Source of the DNA: an uncultured bacterium
GTDB taxonomy: Bacteria; Cyanobacteriota; Vampirovibrionia; Gastranaerophilales; Gastranaerophilaceae
Assembly: GCA_902780525.1 (NCBI GenBank)
Contig: CACZFL010000012.1
Coordinates: forward strand, 1-64,000
Length of the DNA stretch: 64,000 nt
Reading direction: 5' to 3'
Part shown: positions 3,128 through 64,000 of the stretch, in pieces
How positions within the stretch are numbered: position 1 is the stretch's first letter
How the letters are laid out: each line of letters begins with the position of its first letter
Notes under the pieces: generated by a model
Database searches by the model: none
The model's input: the letters and a program-made list of their open reading frames with translations, nothing else
What the model was told of the DNA's origin: nothing
Made by a program: the position numbers and the translations under genes

Positions 3128-4684
3128 ATGAATAAGGGGAAAATAGTAATTGTTGATGATGAAAAAATGTTCACCTCAGCATTAAAAATTTTAATGCGTG
3201 TTGAGGGGTTTGATGATGCCCATTGTTTCAATTCACCGAAAGATGCCCTTGTTTTTTTAAAAGATAACAAACCTGATTTGGTTCTGTCTGACTTTTTAAT
3301 GCCTGATATGAATGGAATTGAGTTTCTGACAGAAGTTAACAAACTTTATCCGGAAGTAAGTAAAATCCTTTTGACTGGTTATGCTGATAAAGAAAATGCC
3401 ATCAAGGCTATAAATGAAGTCGGATTATACAGGTATATCGAAAAACCCTGGAAAGATAATGATTTGATAATTGATATAAAAAATGGTATTGAAAGAAGTT
3501 ATCTGATGTCAGAGCTCAGACAAAAGATTAATGAACTTGAAATTGCAAAAAAAGAGCTTGAAAAATATTCACATAACCTTGAAGAACTTGTAGAAGAAAG
3601 AACTGCTGATTTAAAACAATCAAATGCTAAGCTGGAAGGATTGTTTAATTATTGTGCTGACGGTATTTTGATAATTAATGAAGACGGAATAATTGAACAG
3701 GTTAATCCAGCTTGTGAAAATATGATTGGACATATTAACTCAAAGCTGGTTAATGCTTCAATTGATGATTTCTTGTTCGGTAAAAACAAACTTATATCAA
3801 AAGAGCTCTATAACCTTGAATCTAATGAACTTATGCTCAGGGACTTTTTTATCAAAAATCCGTTTGCTAACTCAGAGATTCCTGTAGATGTTAGTTTTGC
3901 CAGAATAAATCCTGATGATGAATACAAACGATTTGTCGGAGTTATCCGTGATGTTACTGAGCAAAAGAAGGCTGACAGGCTAAGAGATGATTTTATTGCA
4001 ACTCTTACTCACGATTTAAGGACACCGCTTCTGGCTGCTATCCAGACATTAAAATTCTTCTTGGATGGTGCGTTGGGTGAACTTACAGAACAGCAAAAAT
4101 TACTTCTTTCAACAATGTACAAGAGTAATGAAGATTTGCTTGGACTTGTTAATGCACTTTTAGAAGTTTATAAGTATGACGCCGATAAGCTTGTATTAAC
4201 AAAAACCAATTTTAATATTGCAGATTTGGTACACCAGGTTTATGATGAACTACTTCCGCTTGCAAAATCAAAAAATATTGATTTTACTATTGATACAGAA
4301 CTTACGGATACGGAAATACTCGCTGACAGAAGTGAGTTAAGACGTGTTATATGTAATTTATGCGGGAATGCAATTAATTATACGCAGGAAGACGGTAAAG
4401 TTACTATTACATTGAAATCAGATGATAATGATATAATATTTTCCGTTGCAGATAACGGTTCCGGTATTCCTCAAGAAGATATTCCGAATATGTTCCAGAG
4501 ATTTTCACAGGGAACAACGAAAAAACGTTCAACAGGAACGGGTTTAGGGTTATATTTATCAAGACAGATTATTGAATCACACGGAGGAAAAATCTGGCTT
4601 GAAAGTATTCTGAATAAGGGTAGTGAGTTTTCGTTTTTGCTCACCGATGTTGTTACGCACAGAGCATTACAGAAACAAAATTAG
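3128..4684 (+). CDS. hybrid sensor kinase: REC-coiled coil-PAS-HisKA-HATPase
   Basis: The 518-residue cytoplasmic protein starts with a complete receiver (phospho-Asp 55 in SDFLMPD, Lys 107 in EKPW), then a coiled coil (about 125-170), a PAS domain (about 170-280), a HisKA domain with His 295 in THDLRTP, and an ATPase domain with DNGSGI and GTGLGLYLS. All catalytic residues are present. A receiver ahead of PAS and kinase suggests the kinase is controlled by phosphoryl input from another kinase. The NarL-type regulator gene begins 9 bases downstream and is its natural target. No membrane segment is seen. The start is close to an inverted repeat, with AAGG as a short ribosome site. Confidence 0.9.
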   Translation: MNKGKIVIVDDEKMFTSALKILMRVEGFDDAHCFNSPKDALVFLKDNKPDLVLSDFLMPDMNGIEFLTEVNKLYPEVSKILLTGYADKENAIKAINEVGLYRYIEKPWKDNDLIIDIKNGIERSYLMSELRQKINELEIAKKELEKYSHNLEELVEERTADLKQSNAKLEGLFNYCADGILIINEDGIIEQVNPACENMIGHINSKLVNASIDDFLFGKNKLISKELYNLESNELMLRDFFIKNPFANSEIPVDVSFARINPDDEYKRFVGVIRDVTEQKKADRLRDDFIATLTHDLRTPLLAAIQTLKFFLDGALGELTEQQKLLLSTMYKSNEDLLGLVNALLEVYKYDADKLVLTKTNFNIADLVHQVYDELLPLAKSKNIDFTIDTELTDTEILADRSELRRVICNLCGNAINYTQEDGKVTITLKSDDNDIIFSVADNGSGIPQEDIPNMFQRFSQGTTKKRSTGTGLGLYLSRQIIESHGGKIWLESILNKGSEFSFLLTDVVTHRALQKQN

Positions 4685-4693
4685 CAGTAAATT

Positions 4694-5371
4694 ATGGGTG
4701 TTGATATGATTAACGTACTTTTAGTTGAGGATCACGTATTAACAAGAATGGGCTTGTCGATGCTGTTAAGCAACTCAGAGGGAATCTCTCTACTTGCTGA
4801 AGCGGCTGACGGTGCTGAAGGTATTAAAAAGGCCAGAGAGTTTTCTCCTGATGTTATTTTAATGGATATTGGACTGCCTAATATTGACGGTATAGAAGCA
4901 ACTCAAAAAATCAAGGATTTTAATCCGAATATAAAAATATTAATATTTACATCTCGTGACGGTGAGAGTGATGTGTTTGAAGCGTTTAAAGCCGGTGCAG
5001 ACGGGTATATTATGAAGGGCGCAACTCCGGAACAGACAATTACTGCTATTAAAGCGGTTTATGAAGGGGTAGGCTGGATAGACCCGGGCATTGCGAAGAT
5101 GGTTTTTGCAAGTCTGCAAAGACCGTCATCTCAGATTGTTTCAGAACCTGATACGGCGAAAACAGGACGTAATAATTCATACGGCCTTACTGACAGGGAA
5201 TTAGATGTGCTTGAGCTTATGGTAGAGGGACTTACAAATCCGCAAATTGCTGATAGGCTTGTTATAGCTCGTTCAACAGCAAAAGCTCACGTACACAGTA
5301 TTTTGCAAAAACTGTGTACTACTTCCCGCACGCAGGCAACTGTAATGGCTATTAATGAGGGACTTATTTAA
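4694..5371 (+). CDS. NarL/FixJ-family response regulator
   Basis: A 225-residue two-domain regulator: an N-terminal receiver with phospho-Asp 58 (VILMDIG) and a C-terminal LuxR-type helix-turn-helix (about 163-225: LTDRELDVLELMVEGLTNPQIA then RSTAKAHVHSILQKL). It probably receives phosphate from the adjacent hybrid kinase and binds DNA as a dimer. The start at 4694 or the internal ATG at 4706 are both possible; the second has GGTG upstream. Its stop overlaps the next start (TAATG at 5369-5373), so the following unknown protein is translationally coupled and likely acts in the same response. Confidence 0.92.
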   Translation: MGVDMINVLLVEDHVLTRMGLSMLLSNSEGISLLAEAADGAEGIKKAREFSPDVILMDIGLPNIDGIEATQKIKDFNPNIKILIFTSRDGESDVFEAFKAGADGYIMKGATPEQTITAIKAVYEGVGWIDPGIAKMVFASLQRPSSQIVSEPDTAKTGRNNSYGLTDRELDVLELMVEGLTNPQIADRLVIARSTAKAHVHSILQKLCTTSRTQATVMAINEGLI

Positions 5372-54054: not shown

Positions 54055-54081
54055 AAAAAGACTCCGTTAGGGGTCTTTTTT
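54055..54081 (+). terminator. terminator of the tRNA cluster
   Basis: AAAAAGACTCC, GTTA loop, GGGGTCTTTTT. A near copy, fused to a tRNA-Tyr 3' tail, is at 54217-54261. Confidence 0.8.
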
Positions 54082-54216: not shown

Positions 54217-54261
54217 TACCCCTGCCTACCACTAAAAAAAGACTCCGTAAGGAGTCTTTTT
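54217..54261 (+). repeat. copy of the tRNA-Tyr 3' tail plus terminator
   Basis: TACCCCTGCCTACCACT resembles the tRNA-Tyr 3' end (CCACCCCTGCCCACCACT) and is followed by AAAAAGACTCC-GTAA-GGAGTCTTTTT, nearly the same hairpin as at 54055-54081. The hairpin also serves as terminator for the leftward fliD-like gene. Confidence 0.7.
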
Positions 54262-54286: not shown

Positions 54287-57200
54287 CTATGACAAGAACG
54301 ATTTGTACTGGTTTTGTAATCCTGCAATCATGATGTCCATTGATGAGAATTTGTTTTCAAGTCGTTTTCTGTATTTTTCTATTGCAAGATTACCTTTAAT
54401 TATTTTTTGTGATATTGAACTCAAATCTGTGCTAAATGATTTACTTGCAGATGAGAAGTAGCCGTTTGCAGATGCAAGAGCGTTTTCTACCAGTGACTCA
54501 ACTTTTGACAAAATGCCTTCGTTTACTACATTTCCGTTTGTATCTTTACTTCCTATTAATAAGGCTCTTACGTCTTCTTCATAGTTTTCAAACGCTTCCA
54601 TAAATGCTTCTTTATCAATTGACAGGAATGTAATATCTTTTGCATCCGTAGATATACTGCTTGCGTTACTTTCTGCGGAAGCTTTGATACCAATTGCTGC
54701 AAGGTTTCTGAATCTGGTTGTACCCGGGTCAGAACTGTTCATTGCTGTTCTTATATTGTTTCTAAGAAGCTTAAGCATTGTCTGGTCACTCAGTTTTCCG
54801 CCTTTTGCAATTGCGGTATCTATGTTTGATATCAGTTCATTATATCTGTCTAAGATATTTGATACGGCATTATACAGCGATTCTGTGTCTCTCTTGACAT
54901 TAAGTGTAACTGTTGAGCCGTTTGTCAGACCTTTCAGGTTTATGGTTAAACCTGTCAAACCTGTTGAATCACTTGTTACGTTATTTGACAGAGATGTGTA
55001 TTTCGTTCCGTTAATTGTCAATATAGCGTTAGAACCGATCTTTTGTGTATCCGTTACCAGATTCCCGTCTTTTGTCAGTCCCAGCATTTCTGTGAGGTTT
55101 GTATCACCAGCTTCTATGTTTACTGCAGAAGCACCTGTTACTGTCGATTTAATTACAAGTTTACCGTCAATGCTGTCCCAGTATGCCGTTGCAAGTGATT
55201 TCTCACTTGAGTTAATTTGGGAAACTATATCTGACATTGTAGTGTCATTGTTAACATATATATCTGCATCTCCGACTTTGAATGAACCTGTTGTAATACT
55301 TTCACCGGAACCAAGATTTCTGAATAACCCTGCTTCACCAAGAGTTGTTTTGTCATTCATTTTGTACAGAAGTCTTGAACTTTCAAGCATATTTTCGTCA
55401 TTTTTTCCTATACCGGTTATCGCTACAAAGTTTGATTTGTCGCTTGTTGAACCTATGCTGATGTTTACATTTTGATTAACTGTTCCGTCGCCGTTTTTAG
55501 CATAGATTCTTAATTTACCGTCTCTCAGAAAACCATTTTCGTCAAAATCTATGTACAAATCGTTAAACGCTGAATTAAGCTTTGTCTGTAGATTTGAGAA
55601 GTTATCATTTTCATCAATGTTAATGGTTGCTCTTTGACCGTCTCTATAAACAGTCAGTGCACCGCCTGATATAGATACTGTGCTCAGTTTTGTTGTTCTG
55701 TCTGCATAGTTAACTGCAGATAATTGTTCTTGGGTCGTTGTAATAATCTTAGATTTTACAGGCGCCGAGCTTGCTGAGTACCCGCCCAAATCTTTTGGCC
55801 CGTTTAATTTAATAACATCCATAAGATTTGAAGTGGATTCAGACGCTATATATTCTACGTTATTATATCCGCTTGCTACATAGAATGAACCTCTGGTTAT
55901 ATATGCATCAATACCAACGTCTTTTAATTTGTCTATCAGAGAAGCGAATGTGTCATCCTGTCGCAGAGAAACTGTTTTGTAGTAGTCATTTACCTTAAAC
56001 ACAAGAGAACCTTCATCAAACCAAACAGTTTCTGTAGAACCGTTAACAACAGTTTGATAGTTTAGTGATGCAAGCGCCGTGCTGTTTGTTGCTGCAACGG
56101 TTGTTGTAACCCTTACTGTAGAACTCAGTCTTGAGGTTTCAACAGCGTGCTGACCGCTGGTTGTTTGTGACAGGCTTGATAATTTCAATGCTGAAAGTAT
56201 TTTAGAACCACCGCTGATTTGTTTAAGATAAATATCGGCGTCTGCTTTCAGATAGACCTTACCGTCTGACAGTACCTGACCTGTTATTCCATATTGTGCC
56301 AAACCTACTATCGGGTTATTTATAAATTCGTCAATTGTCAGTGTCGGGTCTACCATTATTGTTGATGCAACTCCGTCTACCATAAGACGAATCTTACCAT
56401 TACCGTTAGAATATCCATTTATATCGGATATTTTTGTATTTGCGTTCAGTTCAACAGCAGTATCATCGTAAACAATATATCCTGAGTTGGTGTTGGAGTA
56501 CACATTTATTGTTGTTGAGTTATAAGAATTATGTTCACCAATATTCATTTTTAATGCATTCTGGATTGATGTACTCATGCTTTTAACGTATGCACCGCTG
56601 CCGTTAAGTTCGGAAATTTTAACTTTGTTACCGACAATTTCCGCTTTGATTCCGTAGTTACTGTCGTTAATTTTGTTGCAGAATCCCTGAACGCTGAGTT
56701 CTTTATTTATGTTAACTGAAACGATGCCGTAAACAGGTGAATATATTACAACTGAACCATCGTTATCCATACCAAGCGCACCCATTGAGTTTGATGTGTT
56801 GATATTTGCTGATGATGTCATTGTAATAGGTGCTGTTGTTGAATAAGTGTCCGTAACAGGATGTAATATACCCATATTTGTAGCTATTGCACCATCTATA
56901 TAGTTACCTGTTGTTGACGTCAATGAAATGATGCCGTCATCAAGAGTAGCCGTAATACCATATTGTGCAAGTGTATCAAATAAATCCTGTACGGTTGAAG
57001 ATGCTGTTAGAGAGCTTATTGTTGTAACCGTACTGCCGCCGTCTTGTTTTTTTATAACCAATCTGTCGGATGTAGCCGTTACGGCACCAATTTGTCCCAA
57101 AGTGGCATCTCTGTTTATTAATGTTTCATGCGTTGCATAGACAATGTCTGTTGATGTCATTTTTGATAAAGAAATATACGGATCTTCGGTCGTAGTAAAG

Positions 57201-58174
57201 CCTAAAATCTCGGCTAACCGTCCGCCAAATACATTTCCGAATTTATCTGATGTCAGTGTGATTGTACCATCATCACTAACTTCATGGTATATTTGGAAGT
57301 TATTTTCTAATACGTCAAATATGCTTGAGAGTGTTGATTCTGTGGTAAATGTTGTAATATTTACTACAGAGCCGTCATTTTTTGTAATAGTAAATGCACA
57401 GTCGCTGTTGCTTTCTATGTCAAAGTGTTTTAACTTCGAATTAATTGTTGCCGTTGCAGGAGTAGTTATTGTTGTTATAACATTAATTTTGTTTGTATCA
57501 TAACCATAGTTAACGTTGCCCAGATGCAGGTTTGCCATAACTCCTGTTGCATCACTTTTCAGGGCACTCGTGCCGACATTCATTGAGAATTTTCCGGTGT
57601 TATCATCATAACTGGCTTCAATACCTATTCCATATAATTTGTCGATAAAATCTGCAATTGTTGTTGTATCGTCAATGGATACATTTCTTTGAAAGCCATC
57701 AACTTCAAATACAATATTGCCGGCCTGAATAGGGTGATTACCAGGGTCATCGCTTAAATCAAATAATCTTGATGTTGATGTTGCCGTAGTTGTTACGGTT
57801 GCCGTAACATCCCTGCTAATACCACTGTTTACCTCCGTGGCTGTGGCAAGTTGATTAACTTCTATATTATAAGTTGCGTTTTCTGCAGAAGTAGTTGCTA
57901 TCGCCGATAAAACAGATACATTGCTTGAATCTGCAATATTCTGTGAGAACAAGTCAATGGATGCAATACCAAATCGTGCATCGGTAACATTTTCCAGCAA
58001 ACTCTGGAATGAACTGAAGTAGTTTTTAATATTATTCAGTGTTTCCTGTGCGCCGGTTATTGTTGATTTTTTTGTTTCAAGTTTGGTAATTTCTGCTTGT
58101 TTAACAGATACTAGGGCTTCGACCCATGATGATGTGTCCATTCCTGAAGCTAATCCGCTAAATGATATTGACAT
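54287..58174 (-). CDS. fliD: giant FliD-like flagellar cap/hook-associated protein
   Basis: The 1295-residue protein has a FliD N-terminus (ISFSGLASGMDTSSWVEALVSVKQAEI, coiled coil to about residue 65) and a FliD C-terminus (NVKRDTESLYNAVSNILDRYNELI, later IEKYRKRLENKFSSMDIMIAGLQNQYKSFL). FliD is usually about 450-700 residues; here the centre is swollen by repeated beta-rich modules of the flagellin-IN type (each with a TTIADFIDKLYGIGIEASYDD-like segment followed by a beta strand set). FliD caps the filament and folds flagellin. It lies 17 bases downstream of a still larger paralogue, and its terminator is at 54236-54261. Confidence 0.92.
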   Translation of the reverse strand: MSISFSGLASGMDTSSWVEALVSVKQAEITKLETKKSTITGAQETLNNIKNYFSSFQSLLENVTDARFGIASIDLFSQNIADSSNVSVLSAIATTSAENATYNIEVNQLATATEVNSGISRDVTATVTTTATSTSRLFDLSDDPGNHPIQAGNIVFEVDGFQRNVSIDDTTTIADFIDKLYGIGIEASYDDNTGKFSMNVGTSALKSDATGVMANLHLGNVNYGYDTNKINVITTITTPATATINSKLKHFDIESNSDCAFTITKNDGSVVNITTFTTESTLSSIFDVLENNFQIYHEVSDDGTITLTSDKFGNVFGGRLAEILGFTTTEDPYISLSKMTSTDIVYATHETLINRDATLGQIGAVTATSDRLVIKKQDGGSTVTTISSLTASSTVQDLFDTLAQYGITATLDDGIISLTSTTGNYIDGAIATNMGILHPVTDTYSTTAPITMTSSANINTSNSMGALGMDNDGSVVIYSPVYGIVSVNINKELSVQGFCNKINDSNYGIKAEIVGNKVKISELNGSGAYVKSMSTSIQNALKMNIGEHNSYNSTTINVYSNTNSGYIVYDDTAVELNANTKISDINGYSNGNGKIRLMVDGVASTIMVDPTLTIDEFINNPIVGLAQYGITGQVLSDGKVYLKADADIYLKQISGGSKILSALKLSSLSQTTSGQHAVETSRLSSTVRVTTTVAATNSTALASLNYQTVVNGSTETVWFDEGSLVFKVNDYYKTVSLRQDDTFASLIDKLKDVGIDAYITRGSFYVASGYNNVEYIASESTSNLMDVIKLNGPKDLGGYSASSAPVKSKIITTTQEQLSAVNYADRTTKLSTVSISGGALTVYRDGQRATINIDENDNFSNLQTKLNSAFNDLYIDFDENGFLRDGKLRIYAKNGDGTVNQNVNISIGSTSDKSNFVAITGIGKNDENMLESSRLLYKMNDKTTLGEAGLFRNLGSGESITTGSFKVGDADIYVNNDTTMSDIVSQINSSEKSLATAYWDSIDGKLVIKSTVTGASAVNIEAGDTNLTEMLGLTKDGNLVTDTQKIGSNAILTINGTKYTSLSNNVTSDSTGLTGLTINLKGLTNGSTVTLNVKRDTESLYNAVSNILDRYNELISNIDTAIAKGGKLSDQTMLKLLRNNIRTAMNSSDPGTTRFRNLAAIGIKASAESNASSISTDAKDITFLSIDKEAFMEAFENYEEDVRALLIGSKDTNGNVVNEGILSKVESLVENALASANGYFSSASKSFSTDLSSISQKIIKGNLAIEKYRKRLENKFSSMDIMIAGLQNQYKSFLS

Positions 58175-58191
58175 AATTACTGTTCCTTTTT

Positions 58192-61100
58192 TTAGTTAAA
58201 GTAAACCTGGTATTGTGTTTGAATATTACTATTCAATATGTTCATTGACATATATTTTTTCTCTAAACGTTCGCGATATTTTTCGATTGCATCATTGCCC
58301 TTTGCAATTTTATTATCGAGTCTGTTTATTTGTCTTTCGAAAGATTCTTCAGTTCTTTCAAAATAACCGCCTGCATTTTCAACTGCTTCATCTATAAGTG
58401 CTTCCAGTTTTGTCAGGATACCTTCTTCTATGAGGTTTCCTTCGTCATCAACTCTTCCGATAAGAAGTGTTCTGACACTGTCTGAATCAGCTTCAAATGC
58501 TTTTGCAAATTTTTCGTTGTCCAGAGACAGTTTGTATATACCGCTTCCGACTGACAGATTTGTCGGGTCTGCAGTGTTTGTAACTATACCTATTGAAAGT
58601 ATGTTTTTGAATATCGACGAGTTTTTGTTAGTACCTGTCATTATTGATTTTATTTGATTTCTCAAACGTTTGAGTTCGCTGTCATTTTTAAGTTCACTTT
58701 TTGAACTCAATGCTCCATTTATATTATCTATCAATGCGTTGTATGCGTCAATGACATCACTTACTGCAAGTGCCAATGATTGTACATCCCTCTTGACTGA
58801 CAGAATTGTAGCTTCACCTGCAGACATGCCTTTAACGTTTATAGTCAAACCTTTAATGCTTGTAACATCACTTCCCAGAGTATTTGATACTGATGTGTAT
58901 GCTGCACCGTTAATTCTTACTCTTGCATTTTTACCTTGTTTTTGAACATCGGTATTAATTGTAGTTGTAGCAGTTCCGGTTGCTTCATCGTGTGAAGTTT
59001 TGGTAAATCCTAAAATATCGGTTAAATTGCTTGAGCCTGATTCAAAGTTAATAAAGAAGTTACCGGTATTGTTGGATACGATTCTGAGTTCACCGTCAAT
59101 GCTGTCCCAGTATGCATTAACATTTGTGTCAGGGTTCGTGTTAATTTGCGAAGCCAATTCACCTAATGTTGTTGTTTCATCAATAGTTATTGTAGCATCA
59201 CCAATTACAAAATCACCTGTTGTAACGACGCCATTTCTGAATATTCCTGCTTCGGTAACTTTTGTATTTTCGTTTGCTTTGAAGAATTGTCTTGTACTTT
59301 CTGCTACACCGTTATTTGTAAATATACCGGTAATAGCCCCGAAGTTACTTGTATCTTCGTTTGATCCGACAATTAGATTTGTATCTTTCTGGCTAACTTT
59401 CAGATATCCGTCTTCAAATCTGAGGGTTAGGTTTTCTTCATCAGAACCGTTAACATCTTGTCCCAAAGCTGTTCTGAATTTGTTTTGAAGAGTTCTTATA
59501 GTGTCTGTTCCGCTAACCTGAATACCTGCTTTTTTACCATCGGCATATATGCTGAGGCTTCCGCCAAAGATACCGAAAGTATCAAGTGTTGTATTTTCAT
59601 CAGCAAAGTTAACAACTGACAGAGATTTTGTATCAGTTATAGTAGTTGTCGACATAATTGTCTTAGAGCGATTTGTCATTGCGTATCCGCCCAAATCGAT
59701 TTTCTCGGTAAGATTAATAATTGCCGATAGGTTGGAAGTAGTTGCTTCTTCTATAATTGAGAATGTGTCAAAACCGCTGGATACAGACAATTTGCCAGAT
59801 TCTATTTTTGCGTTCAGACCTTTGTCTTTGAATTTTTGTATTAATGTAGCGAACGTATCATCAGAAGTCAACGTAACAGATTTATATGTTCCGTTTTGAG
59901 AGAATGTAATTACGCCGTTAGCTTCAAGAAGTCCGTCTGCAAATGAGCTGAGGGTTGTTTCTTCGGATGCAAAGTATCTGAATTCTTTTTCTTCTTTGTA
60001 TTGAAGAGTTTTTGAAGTAATTATTGTATCGCCTTCTGTTTTGATTGAGAAGTCGGACATATTAAGTATACTAAGAAGGTTAGAACCGCCTTCAGCACTC
60101 TTCAGATAGGTACCGTCATTGGACTGGAATGTTACTCTGCCTCCGGCTAAGATTTCGGATGTTACGCCGTAATCTTTAAGTATATCATTGAGTTGACCGA
60201 GGGTCATTGATTCTCTGATGCTTATATTTTGTTCAAGTCCGTCTGCATAATGAACGGTGATATTTCCGTTTCCGTTGTCGTATCCGTTTAATCTGGATAT
60301 TCTTGTAGAAGCTTTTATAACATTATCTGTGTCTTCAAAACGCAGGTTTCTGGAAGCGGTGTTATCGTAGTTGTTTTCAGTTGTAGTTTCGTAAGTACCG
60401 CCTGTTGTTGTTACGCCGTGGTAAGTTGTAGTTGTATAGACGCCTGCTTTATTTGTAGCAATAATTTGTTCGGAATCGAGAGTATAAGTGCCTTTTTCAC
60501 CTGTGATTAATTTTAATCCGTTTTTCAGTTCCGTATCCATGCCGACGATATAATATCCTTCGTCGATAAGCGTCGGAGTGAATGAGATTCTTCCGGTTTT
60601 GTCCTCGATTGTAACTTCAATACCGTAGTCGTTAAACAATCTGTTTCTGATTTCCTGCATAGTAGTATCGTGGTCGAATATGATGCTCTTACCACCTTCA
60701 GGAGTTTCAAGAGTCATTGTCATGTCTGCCGTAATACCAAGGTTATCAAGTCTTGTATCATAGTTCAGCAGAGTTGTATTCTGTTTTGTATAACCGTCAT
60801 TGTTAAATCTTATATCGTAGTCATACTTGTTGTAGTAGAAACCTTCGCCTTTGCTGTTTTGGATTCTGAAGTCTTTTTGCAGACCGTCGCTTATGCCGAG
60901 AATGTAAGTATATTCGTTACCTACGAGACTAATTGTTTTATCTGCGTTTATGGTTACGTTAATCTTATATATATCGTTGCCTAATACTGCGCTGGCTTCT
61001 GTTGCAAGCTGGTTAAGAGTTCCGAAGTGTTCGAGCTGATATACGAATTCCTGGAATGTTTCACCGTCAGTTATTGCATTACTGTTATTGTTGTAGCTGT

Positions 61101-64000
61101 TTGTTCCTGTCAGAGTATGACCTGTGCTGCCGGCAGTCCATGTAATTACGTATGTTGTAGTAGTTTCGTCACGGAGGATTGTTCCGTTTTTAACAACTCT
61201 GTCATCGGTTGCATCTGCAGCAAATGTTGTATTGTTGTGAGTAACAATAGTAATGTATTGGTCTGTGTATGTATCGAAGTTTTGCAGACGCATATTGTCG
61301 TAGTTGGTGTACGTATACTGAGTTTTGTTATTGGAGTTGTTTGCGTATTGAATGTTGTACGAGTACGACTTGCCGTACGAATGTCCTTCTTTTGTAGCTG
61401 ATTTGATTTTCAAGGCGTTAGCCAGGAAGTCGTCAACTCTTGATACATAAGTGTATTCATCACCGGTAAAGTGGAATTTCCCGTCTCCGTCAACATAACT
61501 TGAGAGTGTAAAGTCTTCGGAGAGGTTAAACATTGCTTTGTATTGCGTCGTAGCCTGAGCGAGCGATCTGTTGATATCAGCGATGAATTGGTTCATTGTT
61601 TCAGGCTTAGCATCAGTATCTTCAGTGCCGAGAGTACCATATGTCCATGTAACAGTAATTGTTCTTGTTACCCCTGATATGTCACCGTCTGTAACGACTT
61701 CATCTACGATTGTTCTATAAGTCTTGCCCTCACCGACCTCAACTTTAAGGGCGTTTTTGATGTTATTACTTAATTTTTTAATATAAGTAGTGTCATCACC
61801 TGTAATGCTTAATCTACCGTTAACAATACTGACGCCAAGTCCTGCATTTCTGAGTTTAGCTAACAGCTTATCGTTTTTGCCGATAACTATCGTACCGTTG
61901 TTAGTAGTAATAGTTGCGTTAGATGTTACTCCGAGGTTAGCAAGAGTAGTGTTTTCGTTAATTGTAGAGTTCAAAGTAGCTTTTCGAGCGGCAGTATTTG
62001 TGCTTGAGAACAGATGACTGATCTCGTATGATTCACCGTCACCAGTTGATATATTGAGGATATTTGCTAGATCAGCGGACATTTCTTTAATATAAGAAGT
62101 TCCGTTGGAGCTTGATATACTGATTTTCCCGTTAGAAAGAGTTACATTAAATCCATTGTTTTTGAGCGTACTTAATTTGTTCATAATAGATTCGGAGGTG
62201 CTAATAGTCATAGTTACTAATGTTGTACCAGTTTTAGAGTACACTATGGTAGCATTTTGATTTACTCCGAAGTCAGTAAGTTTGGAGTTGCTGTTAAATA
62301 TTAATGAACTTTCTGTAAGAAGCTGATTAGAAGTTGTGCTCGAGAATTTTTCGAATGTGTACCAATCCCAGCTGTTGTTTTCGCCAATGCTGATATTTAG
62401 TGCTTCCTGAAGTCCCTTGGACATAAATGATATATAGTGTCCAGGGTCACTGCTTGAGATGCTTACAACACCGACGTTGTTAACATTTACGTCAAAGCCA
62501 AAATCTCTGAGTCTCTGCAGAATATTATCGTTGCCGTAAAGGAGTTGTGTTGTAGTTTCTGCAATTGTAATTGTAGCTCTCGACAGACCTAGGTCAGAAA
62601 GTTTGGTATTTTCGTTAATGGTCTGCGGTAAGTTATATGTAACGGTTGAAGATCCCGTACTGTATGTATCATGAGGAACATTATTGTAGGAGTTTCCTTC
62701 ACCTGTAGTTATTCTAAGCAGACCGCTCAGGTTATCTGTGAAAGACTTGATGTAGTGTTTTCCGTCATTACTTTCAATACTTACTTTGCCATCGACAAGA
62801 TCAACACTGAAGCCTTTGGATTCAAGCTCCCTCAACCTGCTCATTATGCTATCACCTGAGTAAATTCCGATTGATTTCGTACTTGACCCGTCATAGTACA
62901 TAATTGTAGCTGCTTGAATTATGCCGAAATCTCCGAGTGTTGTGTTTTCATCAAGAGTAACTGTTCTTACTGTCTGAAGAGTTTGTGTTGCGCTGTCATG
63001 AAGCGTATAATTAACGTCGCCGTATGACTTACCCTCTCCTACATTTATTTTGAAGCCGTTTTTGAAGTAATTAGCGGTTCCTTCAGTCAGATAATTTCCG
63101 TTTGTTGAAATTATGGAAACTCTTCCCTGCGGGTCAACAGACAGACTGAAACCTGCTTCTTCAAATGCATCTTCTATTACTGTAGATTTTGTTGTATCTA
63201 CCTGTTTAATAGTGCCTTCGCTTACATCATAGTATTTGAAGTTTGTAGTATTGTTCATACCGATATCGCCAAAAGTAACACCTTCTTTTTCATCGATACC
63301 GTGCAATGTTTCATATGCAAGAGTACCCGTTGTCCCTTGTAATTTTATTGTTTGTGATGTATAAGTTTGTAATTTTGATGCGACTTTAAAATATTTTGTA
63401 TAACCGGTTACTGAATTTATATTAACTTCACCGTCGCTGCCAAAGTACATTTTGCCGTCTTCAAATTTGCAATTCAAACCTTTTTCGTTCAGTTTTGTTA
63501 TCATCTGAGCTATTGTGTCTGAGTTACCTGTTGATGTATTGCTGGATTTGATTGTAACTTTTTGTCCGTTGGTTAGCGTAAATGTGAAGTCACCTGTAAT
63601 GCCCAATTCATACATTGTTGAGTTAGCAGTTGCTGTCGTACCATTAGTACAGGTCATAGTAGCTGTACTTGTGATGGTAATATTTGTAATGTTAACTTCG
63701 CTATCGTAATTGTAATTTGTTAAATTCAGAGCTGTTGCAACATTGCCTGAAATATAGCCGTTTGTAATTCTTAATAAATTTTCGGTATCACCATTAGCAC
63801 CAAGAGTTGCAACAGGGCTTGAGCCATTTGTGAACTGGAAGTTGTTAATTGCATCTCTTAATTCGCCTATAGTTGTTGTACTGCTAACGTTGATTGTTCC
63901 TGATATATTTCCGTATCTGTCATGAACAACTACTTCTTCAGCAGAGTTGATACCGAACGTACTCAGTGCAGTTTGTGCGGTAGCATTTTCCGAAGTCTTG
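58192..64000 (-). CDS. second giant FliD-like protein (5' end beyond the window)
   Basis: The frame stays open to the window edge, so at least 1935 residues are seen; the Met at 63657 is internal. The C-terminal 500 residues parallel the neighbouring FliD-like protein (ANENTKVTEAGIFRNG, NAYWDSIDGELRIVS, ITVNVKG-like strand, IEKYRERLEKKYMSMNILNSNIQTQYQVYF). Upstream lie at least eight modules of about 95 residues, each with a TTLGDFGI-type strand, an SIMSRLRELESKGFSVDL-type helix, a GKVSIESNDGKHYIK-type strand pair and a closing GEGNSY-like motif. The N-terminal FliD signature is not visible yet. Function as cap or filament-associated adhesin is inferred. Confidence 0.85.
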   Translation of the reverse strand, partial: KTSENATAQTALSTFGINSAEEVVVHDRYGNISGTINVSSTTTIGELRDAINNFQFTNGSSPVATLGANGDTENLLRITNGYISGNVATALNLTNYNYDSEVNITNITITSTATMTCTNGTTATANSTMYELGITGDFTFTLTNGQKVTIKSSNTSTGNSDTIAQMITKLNEKGLNCKFEDGKMYFGSDGEVNINSVTGYTKYFKVASKLQTYTSQTIKLQGTTGTLAYETLHGIDEKEGVTFGDIGMNNTTNFKYYDVSEGTIKQVDTTKSTVIEDAFEEAGFSLSVDPQGRVSIISTNGNYLTEGTANYFKNGFKINVGEGKSYGDVNYTLHDSATQTLQTVRTVTLDENTTLGDFGIIQAATIMYYDGSSTKSIGIYSGDSIMSRLRELESKGFSVDLVDGKVSIESNDGKHYIKSFTDNLSGLLRITTGEGNSYNNVPHDTYSTGSSTVTYNLPQTINENTKLSDLGLSRATITIAETTTQLLYGNDNILQRLRDFGFDVNVNNVGVVSISSSDPGHYISFMSKGLQEALNISIGENNSWDWYTFEKFSSTTSNQLLTESSLIFNSNSKLTDFGVNQNATIVYSKTGTTLVTMTISTSESIMNKLSTLKNNGFNVTLSNGKISISSSNGTSYIKEMSADLANILNISTGDGESYEISHLFSSTNTAARKATLNSTINENTTLANLGVTSNATITTNNGTIVIGKNDKLLAKLRNAGLGVSIVNGRLSITGDDTTYIKKLSNNIKNALKVEVGEGKTYRTIVDEVVTDGDISGVTRTITVTWTYGTLGTEDTDAKPETMNQFIADINRSLAQATTQYKAMFNLSEDFTLSSYVDGDGKFHFTGDEYTYVSRVDDFLANALKIKSATKEGHSYGKSYSYNIQYANNSNNKTQYTYTNYDNMRLQNFDTYTDQYITIVTHNNTTFAADATDDRVVKNGTILRDETTTTYVITWTAGSTGHTLTGTNSYNNNSNAITDGETFQEFVYQLEHFGTLNQLATEASAVLGNDIYKINVTINADKTISLVGNEYTYILGISDGLQKDFRIQNSKGEGFYYNKYDYDIRFNNDGYTKQNTTLLNYDTRLDNLGITADMTMTLETPEGGKSIIFDHDTTMQEIRNRLFNDYGIEVTIEDKTGRISFTPTLIDEGYYIVGMDTELKNGLKLITGEKGTYTLDSEQIIATNKAGVYTTTTYHGVTTTGGTYETTTENNYDNTASRNLRFEDTDNVIKASTRISRLNGYDNGNGNITVHYADGLEQNISIRESMTLGQLNDILKDYGVTSEILAGGRVTFQSNDGTYLKSAEGGSNLLSILNMSDFSIKTEGDTIITSKTLQYKEEKEFRYFASEETTLSSFADGLLEANGVITFSQNGTYKSVTLTSDDTFATLIQKFKDKGLNAKIESGKLSVSSGFDTFSIIEEATTSNLSAIINLTEKIDLGGYAMTNRSKTIMSTTTITDTKSLSVVNFADENTTLDTFGIFGGSLSIYADGKKAGIQVSGTDTIRTLQNKFRTALGQDVNGSDEENLTLRFEDGYLKVSQKDTNLIVGSNEDTSNFGAITGIFTNNGVAESTRQFFKANENTKVTEAGIFRNGVVTTGDFVIGDATITIDETTTLGELASQINTNPDTNVNAYWDSIDGELRIVSNNTGNFFINFESGSSNLTDILGFTKTSHDEATGTATTTINTDVQKQGKNARVRINGAAYTSVSNTLGSDVTSIKGLTINVKGMSAGEATILSVKRDVQSLALAVSDVIDAYNALIDNINGALSSKSELKNDSELKRLRNQIKSIMTGTNKNSSIFKNILSIGIVTNTADPTNLSVGSGIYKLSLDNEKFAKAFEADSDSVRTLLIGRVDDEGNLIEEGILTKLEALIDEAVENAGGYFERTEESFERQINRLDNKIAKGNDAIEKYRERLEKKYMSMNILNSNIQTQYQVYFN

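What the first reader, a model, noticed from the sequence alone, without database searches (positions are those of the whole stretch)
54287..64000. Tandem giant FliD-like genes with repeated beta modules
Seen: two adjacent FliD-type proteins of 1295 and at least 1935 residues, with similar C-terminal halves and, in the larger, at least eight modules of about 95 residues closing with GEGxSY-like motifs. Usual FliD is 450-700 residues. The flagellin in the same window is by contrast minimal (275 residues). Inferred: duplicated, expanded caps or long tip adhesins, perhaps mucin- or host-binding, or a cap complex with mixed subunits.
Basis: partly seen in the sequence, partly recalled or inferred. 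Interest (0 to 1): 0.75.

Follow-up and report, generated by a model that had tools for sequence, protein, structure and literature searches.

The report
Giant flagellar-cap proteins with variable tips
A gut bacterium related to cyanobacteria carries, beside its ordinary flagellar cap protein, giant versions up to ten times longer whose two ends still look like a cap but whose middle is a long chain of repeated cap domains that changes quickly between relatives, as if the flagellum tip had been given long, variable arms.

Summary
The second gene does not stop at the window edge: it is one open frame of 4,940 residues (about 534 kDa), from contig position 73014 to 58192. With the 1,295-residue gene it probably forms a two-gene operon; the genome also has an ordinary 583-residue FliD elsewhere. 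The genome belongs to Candidatus Gastranaerophilales. The "modules" are copies of the unit that ordinary FliD carries twice: 32 in the giant, 8 in the 1,295-residue protein. Their predicted fold matches FliD D3. Giant FliDs (2,400-6,600 residues) occur in at least three genera; sixteen giant-lineage proteins form one clade apart from ordinary FliD (support 100/100). In the phylum sample, no FliD_N frame over 799 residues was found outside the family. Both ends are conserved between close relatives and the middle is not (65% against 26%); some relatives carry GLUG solenoid inserts there. Best reading: a dedicated cap paralogue whose dispensable head became a hairpin stalk with a hypervariable, probably adhesive, tip. 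Cap assembly and binding are inferred. New variant of a known kind.

The parts
58192..64000 (-). Giant FliD gene (C-terminal 1,935 of 4,940 residues lie in the window; gene continues to contig position 73014, outside the window)
   Evidence: one open frame, ATG at C12:73014, stop at 58192-58194.
58996..63708 (-). Modules 21-32 of the giant (residues 3103-4673), about 96 residues each; modules 31 and 32 correspond to the two modules of ordinary FliD
   Evidence: fold of modules 23-24 predicted and matched to the FliD D3 region.
58219..58935 (-). FliD_C (D1/D0) domain of the giant, residues 4694-4932
   Evidence: PF07195, E 6.8e-35; profile of this region against PDB, best match a flagellar cap protein (HAP2), E 3.3e-21.
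58175..58191 (-). 17-nt gap between giant stop and next ATG, with Shine-Dalgarno-like AAAAAAAGGAA
   Evidence: sequence between the two genes.
54287..58174 (-). Second expanded FliD, 1,295 aa, downstream gene of the proposed operon
   Evidence: AlphaFold model of residues 96-1295 and Foldseek match to FliD caps, best E 4.6e-9.
57839..58147 (-). FliD_N domain of the 1,295-aa protein (residues 10-112)
55067..57814 (-). Eight modules of the 1,295-aa protein (residues 121-1036)
54314..55036 (-). FliD_C domain of the 1,295-aa protein (residues 1047-1287)
   Evidence: E 6.1e-29.
54236..54261 (.). Intrinsic-terminator-like hairpin just after the 1,295-aa gene (a near copy lies at 54055-54080)
   Evidence: one search shows the minus-strand sequence AAAAAGACTCCTTACGGAGTCTTTTTTT.

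Best explanation
The gene pair encodes members of a giant FliD paralogue lineage of Gastranaerophilales. SHOWN: both chain ends are FliD D0-D1 segments, and what lies between is an array of copies of the FliD head unit, inserted between FliD_N and the first head module of ordinary FliD. The lineage split once from ordinary FliD and is kept beside it. The segments near both ends are conserved while the middle turns over. INFERRED: the protein is exported by the flagellar type III system and joins or forms the filament cap through D0-D1. Because both ends must sit in the cap, the array leaves and returns as a hairpin, giving arms tens of nanometres long whose far end is the variable middle of the chain. 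That far end binds something that differs between hosts or habitats (mucus, plant fibre, other cells), so the flagellum tip serves as a variable attachment organ, while the ordinary FliD supports filament growth.
For: FliD_N and FliD_C on one unbroken 4,940-codon frame. The module HMM recovers the two modules of the ordinary FliD, and the giant's last two modules are their best matches (32% and 43% identity). AlphaFold of modules 23-24 (pLDDT 81) matches FliD first: Foldseek's 22 best rows are FliD, and VIA-align gives Z 6.0 to E. coli FliD residues 114-221. Sixteen giant-lineage proteins from three genera are one clade, 100/100, against 49 other FliDs. In six of seven pairs of giants of 2,400-6,600 aa, identity is 60-83% at the ends and 21-66% in the centre; in the window giant against its relative G427, modules 1-7 and 27-32 match one to one and modules 8-26 do not. 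GLUG repeats in the centre of related giants, E down to 4.9e-109. dN/dS about 0.1-0.2 at the ends, with dS saturated. In Pseudomonas the FliD head is dispensable and replaceable and compatibility lies in D1 (PMC8533109). Flagella and FliD as adhesins in other bacteria are reviewed in PMC4009794 (seen only as a search result).
Against: No experiment places the protein on a flagellum or shows binding. The arrangement of domains relative to each other is unresolved (pTM 0.55 and 0.43), so hairpin and length are inference. The window giant has no recognised binding domain: no Pfam match in residues 1254-2505. The closest pair of giants (G063/G029) shows little contrast between centre and ends (86% against 91%). 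No sigma-28-like promoter pattern tied it to the flagellin genes.
Confidence: 0.6

Rival explanations
1. The giants are real caps, but their heads are structural: a shield or spacer for a particular filament type, or a drag, length or immune-evasion device, with no binding role. Fast change in the middle would then reflect relaxed constraint or escape from host antibodies or phages.
For: The centre diverges in sequence without an obvious conserved binding domain in the window giant. The genome carries about eleven flagellin-like genes over the family cut-off, so several filament types are possible.
Against: Relatives keep discrete GLUG solenoids in the centre, which are not expected of a plain spacer. 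Frames stay open over 2,400-6,600 codons in many genomes.
Confidence: 0.2
2. The proteins use FliD-like ends only as an export signal and assembly remnant: they are secreted through the flagellar type III channel and released, or sit along the filament, rather than capping it.
For: Nearly all giant-bearing genomes examined also keep an ordinary FliD, so the giant need not be the cap. FliD_N is weaker in the giant than in the ordinary FliD (bits 55.9 against 70.9).
Against: Both D0-D1 halves are retained and alignable along their length, including the long C-terminal helix seen in the model of the 1,295-aa protein; a mere export signal would need only the N-terminal end.
Confidence: 0.15
3. Artefact or decay: a misassembled repeat region or a drifting, non-functional repeat expansion.
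For: The genomes compared are largely metagenome assemblies, repeats can collapse or chimerise, and several giants end at contig ends.
Against: Long open frames with the same architecture in assemblies from several projects; no stops or Ns in the window giant; repeat copies are divergent, so assembly is not ambiguous; purifying selection at the ends.
Confidence: 0.03

Closest known systems
FliD / HAP2 flagellar filament cap protein (PF02465 + PF07195; e.g. E. coli FliD, PDB 5h5v; Salmonella cap 9gnz)
   Same: N- and C-terminal D0-D1 segments, D3-type head domain fold; last two modules correspond to the two head modules of the ordinary FliD of the same genome.
   Different: 4,940 aa instead of 583 (up to about 6,600 in relatives); 32 head-type modules instead of 2; head centre hypervariable; occurs in addition to an ordinary FliD.
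Giant flagellins (Thomson et al. 2018, PLoS One 13:e0206544; known here only from a reference list seen)
   Same: A flagellar protein of unusually large size.
   Different: Here it is the cap protein, not the filament subunit; no Flagellin_N/C match in the giant.
GLUG / M26-N repeat surface proteins (PF07581, PF05342)
   Same: The centre of several related giants is made of these repeats.
   Different: The window giant has none; the carrier ends are FliD rather than a cell-wall or membrane anchor.
Giant extracellular proteins Giant1-5 of Apilactobacillus kunkeei (PMC12863079)
   Same: 3,000-8,000-residue extracellular proteins from consecutive genes in a small genome (abstract).
   Different: The words flagell- and FliD do not occur in that paper's main text.

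Membership tests
FliD / HAP2 | FliD_N domain at the N-terminus (PF02465) | tested here: met
   Giant 9.4e-15 in the genome search and 3.8e-12 in the protein scan; 1,295-aa protein 2.4e-17.
FliD / HAP2 | FliD_C domain at the C-terminus (PF07195) | tested here: met
   Giant 6.8e-35 on the last 270 residues; 1,295-aa protein 6.1e-29. The full-length scan of the giant did not list it; the separate scan of the end did.
FliD / HAP2 | Head made of D2/D3-type domains between the two D1 halves | tested here: met
   Modules recover the two head modules of ordinary FliD; the predicted fold ranks FliD first with Z 6.0, 88 aligned residues, rmsd 3.1. Z is middling, but the top rows are FliD.
FliD / HAP2 | Oligomeric cap at the filament tip | not testable with these tools
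   Needs imaging or biochemistry; the single-chain models do not address it.
FliD / HAP2 | Export by the flagellar type III system | not testable with these tools
   The genome does encode a full-length FlhA (G000:C4, E 1.5e-258); export itself is not shown.
FliD / HAP2 | Needed for filament elongation | not testable with these tools
   The ordinary FliD is present as well, so the giant may not be needed.
GLUG-repeat surface protein | GLUG motif repeats (PF07581) | tested here: not met
   Not in the window giant; present in the related giants G117, G040, G428, G430, G059 and G064.
Flagellin | Flagellin_N and Flagellin_C domains | tested here: not met
   No match to either in the two expanded FliDs up to E 1.

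The most novel reading that the evidence does not exclude
The flagellar cap of these gut bacteria is a mixed complex in which one or more giant subunits form long hairpin fibres whose distal part is exchanged block by block between relatives. The flagellum would then carry, at its tip, something that works like a phage tail fibre: a receptor-binding system with its own fast-changing specificity, built by iterating the cap's own head domain.
Probability: 0.3. Interest if true: 0.88.

Novelty: new variant of a known kind. Interest (0 to 1): 0.74.

Why it matters
FliD is usually a protein of about 450-700 residues whose head is optional for cap function. Here a lineage has kept an ordinary cap and also evolved a second cap-type protein up to ten times larger, by repeating the head domain and placing variable segments in the middle. 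If the tip reading is right, it gives a concrete molecular handle on how gut Gastranaerophilales attach in rumen and colon. It also shows that the end of a rotating filament can carry a multi-megadalton variable structure (a pentamer of the giant alone would be about 2.7 MDa). It tests the upper limit of what flagellar type III export can pass, and it turns the experimental finding that FliD heads are replaceable into something evolution has used.

Tried and rejected
Sigma-28 control: a TAAA-N13-17-CGAWA pattern lies upstream of the giant (-79) but not upstream of the flagellins tested or the ordinary FliD (some flagellin upstream stretches were picked automatically from the wrong frame), so I dropped it. 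A sigma-70-like site TTGAAA-16-TATAAT (11 of 12) lies upstream instead, though chance gives about three sites of the scan's looser kind in that stretch. Pfam hits to ubiquitin-like families (OTU1_UBXL, Rad60-SLD, UBX) on modules are weak and read as a resemblance of fold, not as ubiquitin. Plasmid-borne spread: no tblastn match of the giant's N-terminal 445 residues in 72,556 plasmids. Local tandem duplication as the origin of the giants: rejected by the tree. A survey of FliD lengths in other phyla was not possible, because the E. coli locus could not serve as a centre; absence outside the phylum is therefore untested. Literature: no report of giant or module-repeated FliD found in the held library; subscription papers are mostly not covered.

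Full report
WHAT IS THERE. The window is positions 1-64000 of an 80,834-base contig of a 2.09 Mb, 35-contig genome, 98.6% complete. Two minus-strand genes lie at its right end: 54287-58174 (1,295 aa) and a frame that leaves the window. Reading on, the second gene is one uninterrupted frame of 4,940 codons, ATG at 73014, stop at 58192, no Ns. The two genes are 17 bases apart with an AAAGGA-type ribosome site between them, and a terminator-like hairpin follows the second, so a two-gene operon is likely. The closest relatives come from records titled Candidatus Gastranaerophilales or uncultured bacterium, several of them from rumen, colon or faeces.

BOTH ARE FliD PROTEINS. FliD_N is found at the start of each (giant 9.4e-15; 1,295-aa protein 2.4e-17) and FliD_C at the end of each (6.8e-35; 6.1e-29). 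A profile of the C-terminal 270 residues of the giant lineage and the ordinary FliD finds the solved caps of Salmonella, E. coli, Pseudomonas and Campylobacter in the PDB (best 3.3e-21). The genome has a third, ordinary FliD of 583 aa on another contig.

THE MODULES ARE FliD HEAD DOMAINS. An HMM started from one module of the giant and iterated over 24 proteins settles at about 96 positions; the final scan finds 32 copies in the giant, 8 in the 1,295-aa protein and 2 in the ordinary FliD. Shuffled and reversed proteins give one weak hit. The giant's modules 31 and 32 are the best partners of the ordinary FliD's modules 1 and 2, and the 1,295-aa protein's modules 7 and 8 likewise. So the extra modules sit between FliD_N and the ordinary head. 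AlphaFold of modules 23-24 from a 91-row alignment gives confident domains (pLDDT 81) but not their mutual arrangement (pTM 0.55). Foldseek's first 22 PDB rows are all FliD, though with E no better than 0.006; VIA-align gives Z 6.0 over 88 residues to E. coli FliD residues 114-221. The model of the 1,295-aa protein (residues 96-1295, pLDDT 76, pTM 0.43) shows successive beta domains joined by weak linkers, then helices ending in a 74-residue helix, and matches FliD caps.

DISTRIBUTION AND ORIGIN. In the genus, 62 of 65 genomes have FliD_N and by my count 39 have at least one FliD_N frame of 1,000 aa or more, up to 6,148 aa; many shorter ones are probably cut by contig ends. Other genera of the same family carry giants of 2,408-6,603 aa. 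In a 386-genome sample of the phylum no FliD_N frame outside this family exceeds 799 aa. Nearly all giant-bearing genomes keep an ordinary FliD too. A maximum-likelihood tree of the FliD core (both ends plus the last two modules) puts sixteen giant-lineage proteins from three genera on one side of a single branch, support 100/100 and in all 200 bootstrap trees, apart from 49 other FliDs. The window pair, and the pairs in two other genera, are later duplications within that lineage. The tandem arrangement was seen only in the two closest relatives.

CONSERVED BASE, CHANGING MIDDLE. Against its relative in G427 the window giant is 50% identical over residues 1-1250 and 67% over 3772-4939, but mostly 16-40% in between. 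Modules 1-7 and 27-32 pair one to one; modules 8-26 do not. A second relative (G426) stays colinear at 53% from residue 2413 to the end, so the loss of similarity to G427 there reflects replacement of blocks rather than uniform decay. In six of seven pairs of giants the centre is clearly less conserved than the ends (65/26, 60/21, 63/33, 70/42, 80/46 and 83/66%; the closest pair is 91/86%), whereas the two pairs of 1,295-aa-type proteins show little contrast (61/57 and 81/72%). The conserved ends are under purifying selection (dN/dS about 0.1-0.2, dS saturated). In several relatives the centre holds GLUG and M26-N repeats, E down to 4.9e-109. Residues 1254-2505 of the window giant match nothing in Pfam.

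HOW IT MOST LIKELY WORKS. In FliD both chain ends form the D0-D1 legs and the head lies between them; in Pseudomonas the head is dispensable and exchangeable and species compatibility lies in D1 (PMC8533109). A head with sixteen times as many modules is thus compatible with capping in principle. Since both ends are fixed in the cap, the array must go out and come back, which puts the middle of the chain farthest from the filament. That is the part that varies. The simplest reading is a stalked, variable tip structure, probably for attachment, made alongside an ordinary cap. Capping, hairpin geometry, export and binding are inferred; homology, architecture, lineage and variation pattern are shown. 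With 534 kDa per chain, five such subunits would weigh about 2.7 MDa (arithmetic; a pentameric cap is known for Salmonella, PMC12221982).

WHAT IS NEW. I found no description of giant or module-repeated FliD in the held literature, and the paper that described Melainabacteria as flagellated does not name FliD in its main text (PMC3787301). The protein is a member of the FliD family by every feature that could be tested, so I call it a new variant of a known kind rather than a new kind. Limits: the compared genomes are largely metagenome assemblies; only one phylum was sampled; no localisation or binding data exist.

Noticed in passing
145 of 146 genomes of the family (e.g. G000:C10:43018-44994 beside FlhA at G000:C4:53198-55189): The FHIPEP (FlhA) search shows two classes of match: about 1e-260 mainly in flagellated genomes and a second full-length homologue at about 1e-211 to 1e-221 found also in genomes without FliD. 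This hints at a separate, widely kept type III-like export apparatus in the family.
   Followed up: no
L051 (G111:C7:29850-30890): A FliD frame of 346 aa in which FliD_N residues 1-111 join directly to the FliD_C core, with all modules missing, beside the same downstream neighbour as giants of sister genomes. Either a natural headless cap or a collapsed assembly.
   Followed up: partly
L055-L056 (G005, 5,924 aa), L057-L058 (G064, 6,214 aa); also G274 (6,511 aa) and G379 (5,508 aa): A second type of giant FliD-like protein in two other genera: module arrays and solenoid inserts, but FliD_N is matched only from about position 15-17 on, and FliD_C was found in G064 but not in G005; G005's lies next to a 584-aa FliD. 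It may be an independent expansion.
   Followed up: partly
G000:C4, C6, C8, C12, C15, C18: Twelve Flagellin_N matches in one 2.1 Mb genome, including two short frames of 95-97 aa at C8:71083 and C8:74403 flanking full-length flagellins, possibly remnants.
   Followed up: no
window 54055-54080 and 54236-54261: Two nearly identical terminator-like hairpins about 180 bases apart downstream of the 1,295-aa gene.
   Followed up: no
L126 and L136: Records titled 'uncultured Acinetobacter sp.' carry FliD genes that fall inside the Gastranaerophilales clade in the tree, so the bins look misnamed or mixed.
   Followed up: no
L109 and L110: Two contigs of one bin (CASDWH010000022 and CASDWH010000011) begin with the same end of a giant-type FliD (same match position, identity and frame length), suggesting a repeated or misassembled contig end.
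   Followed up: no
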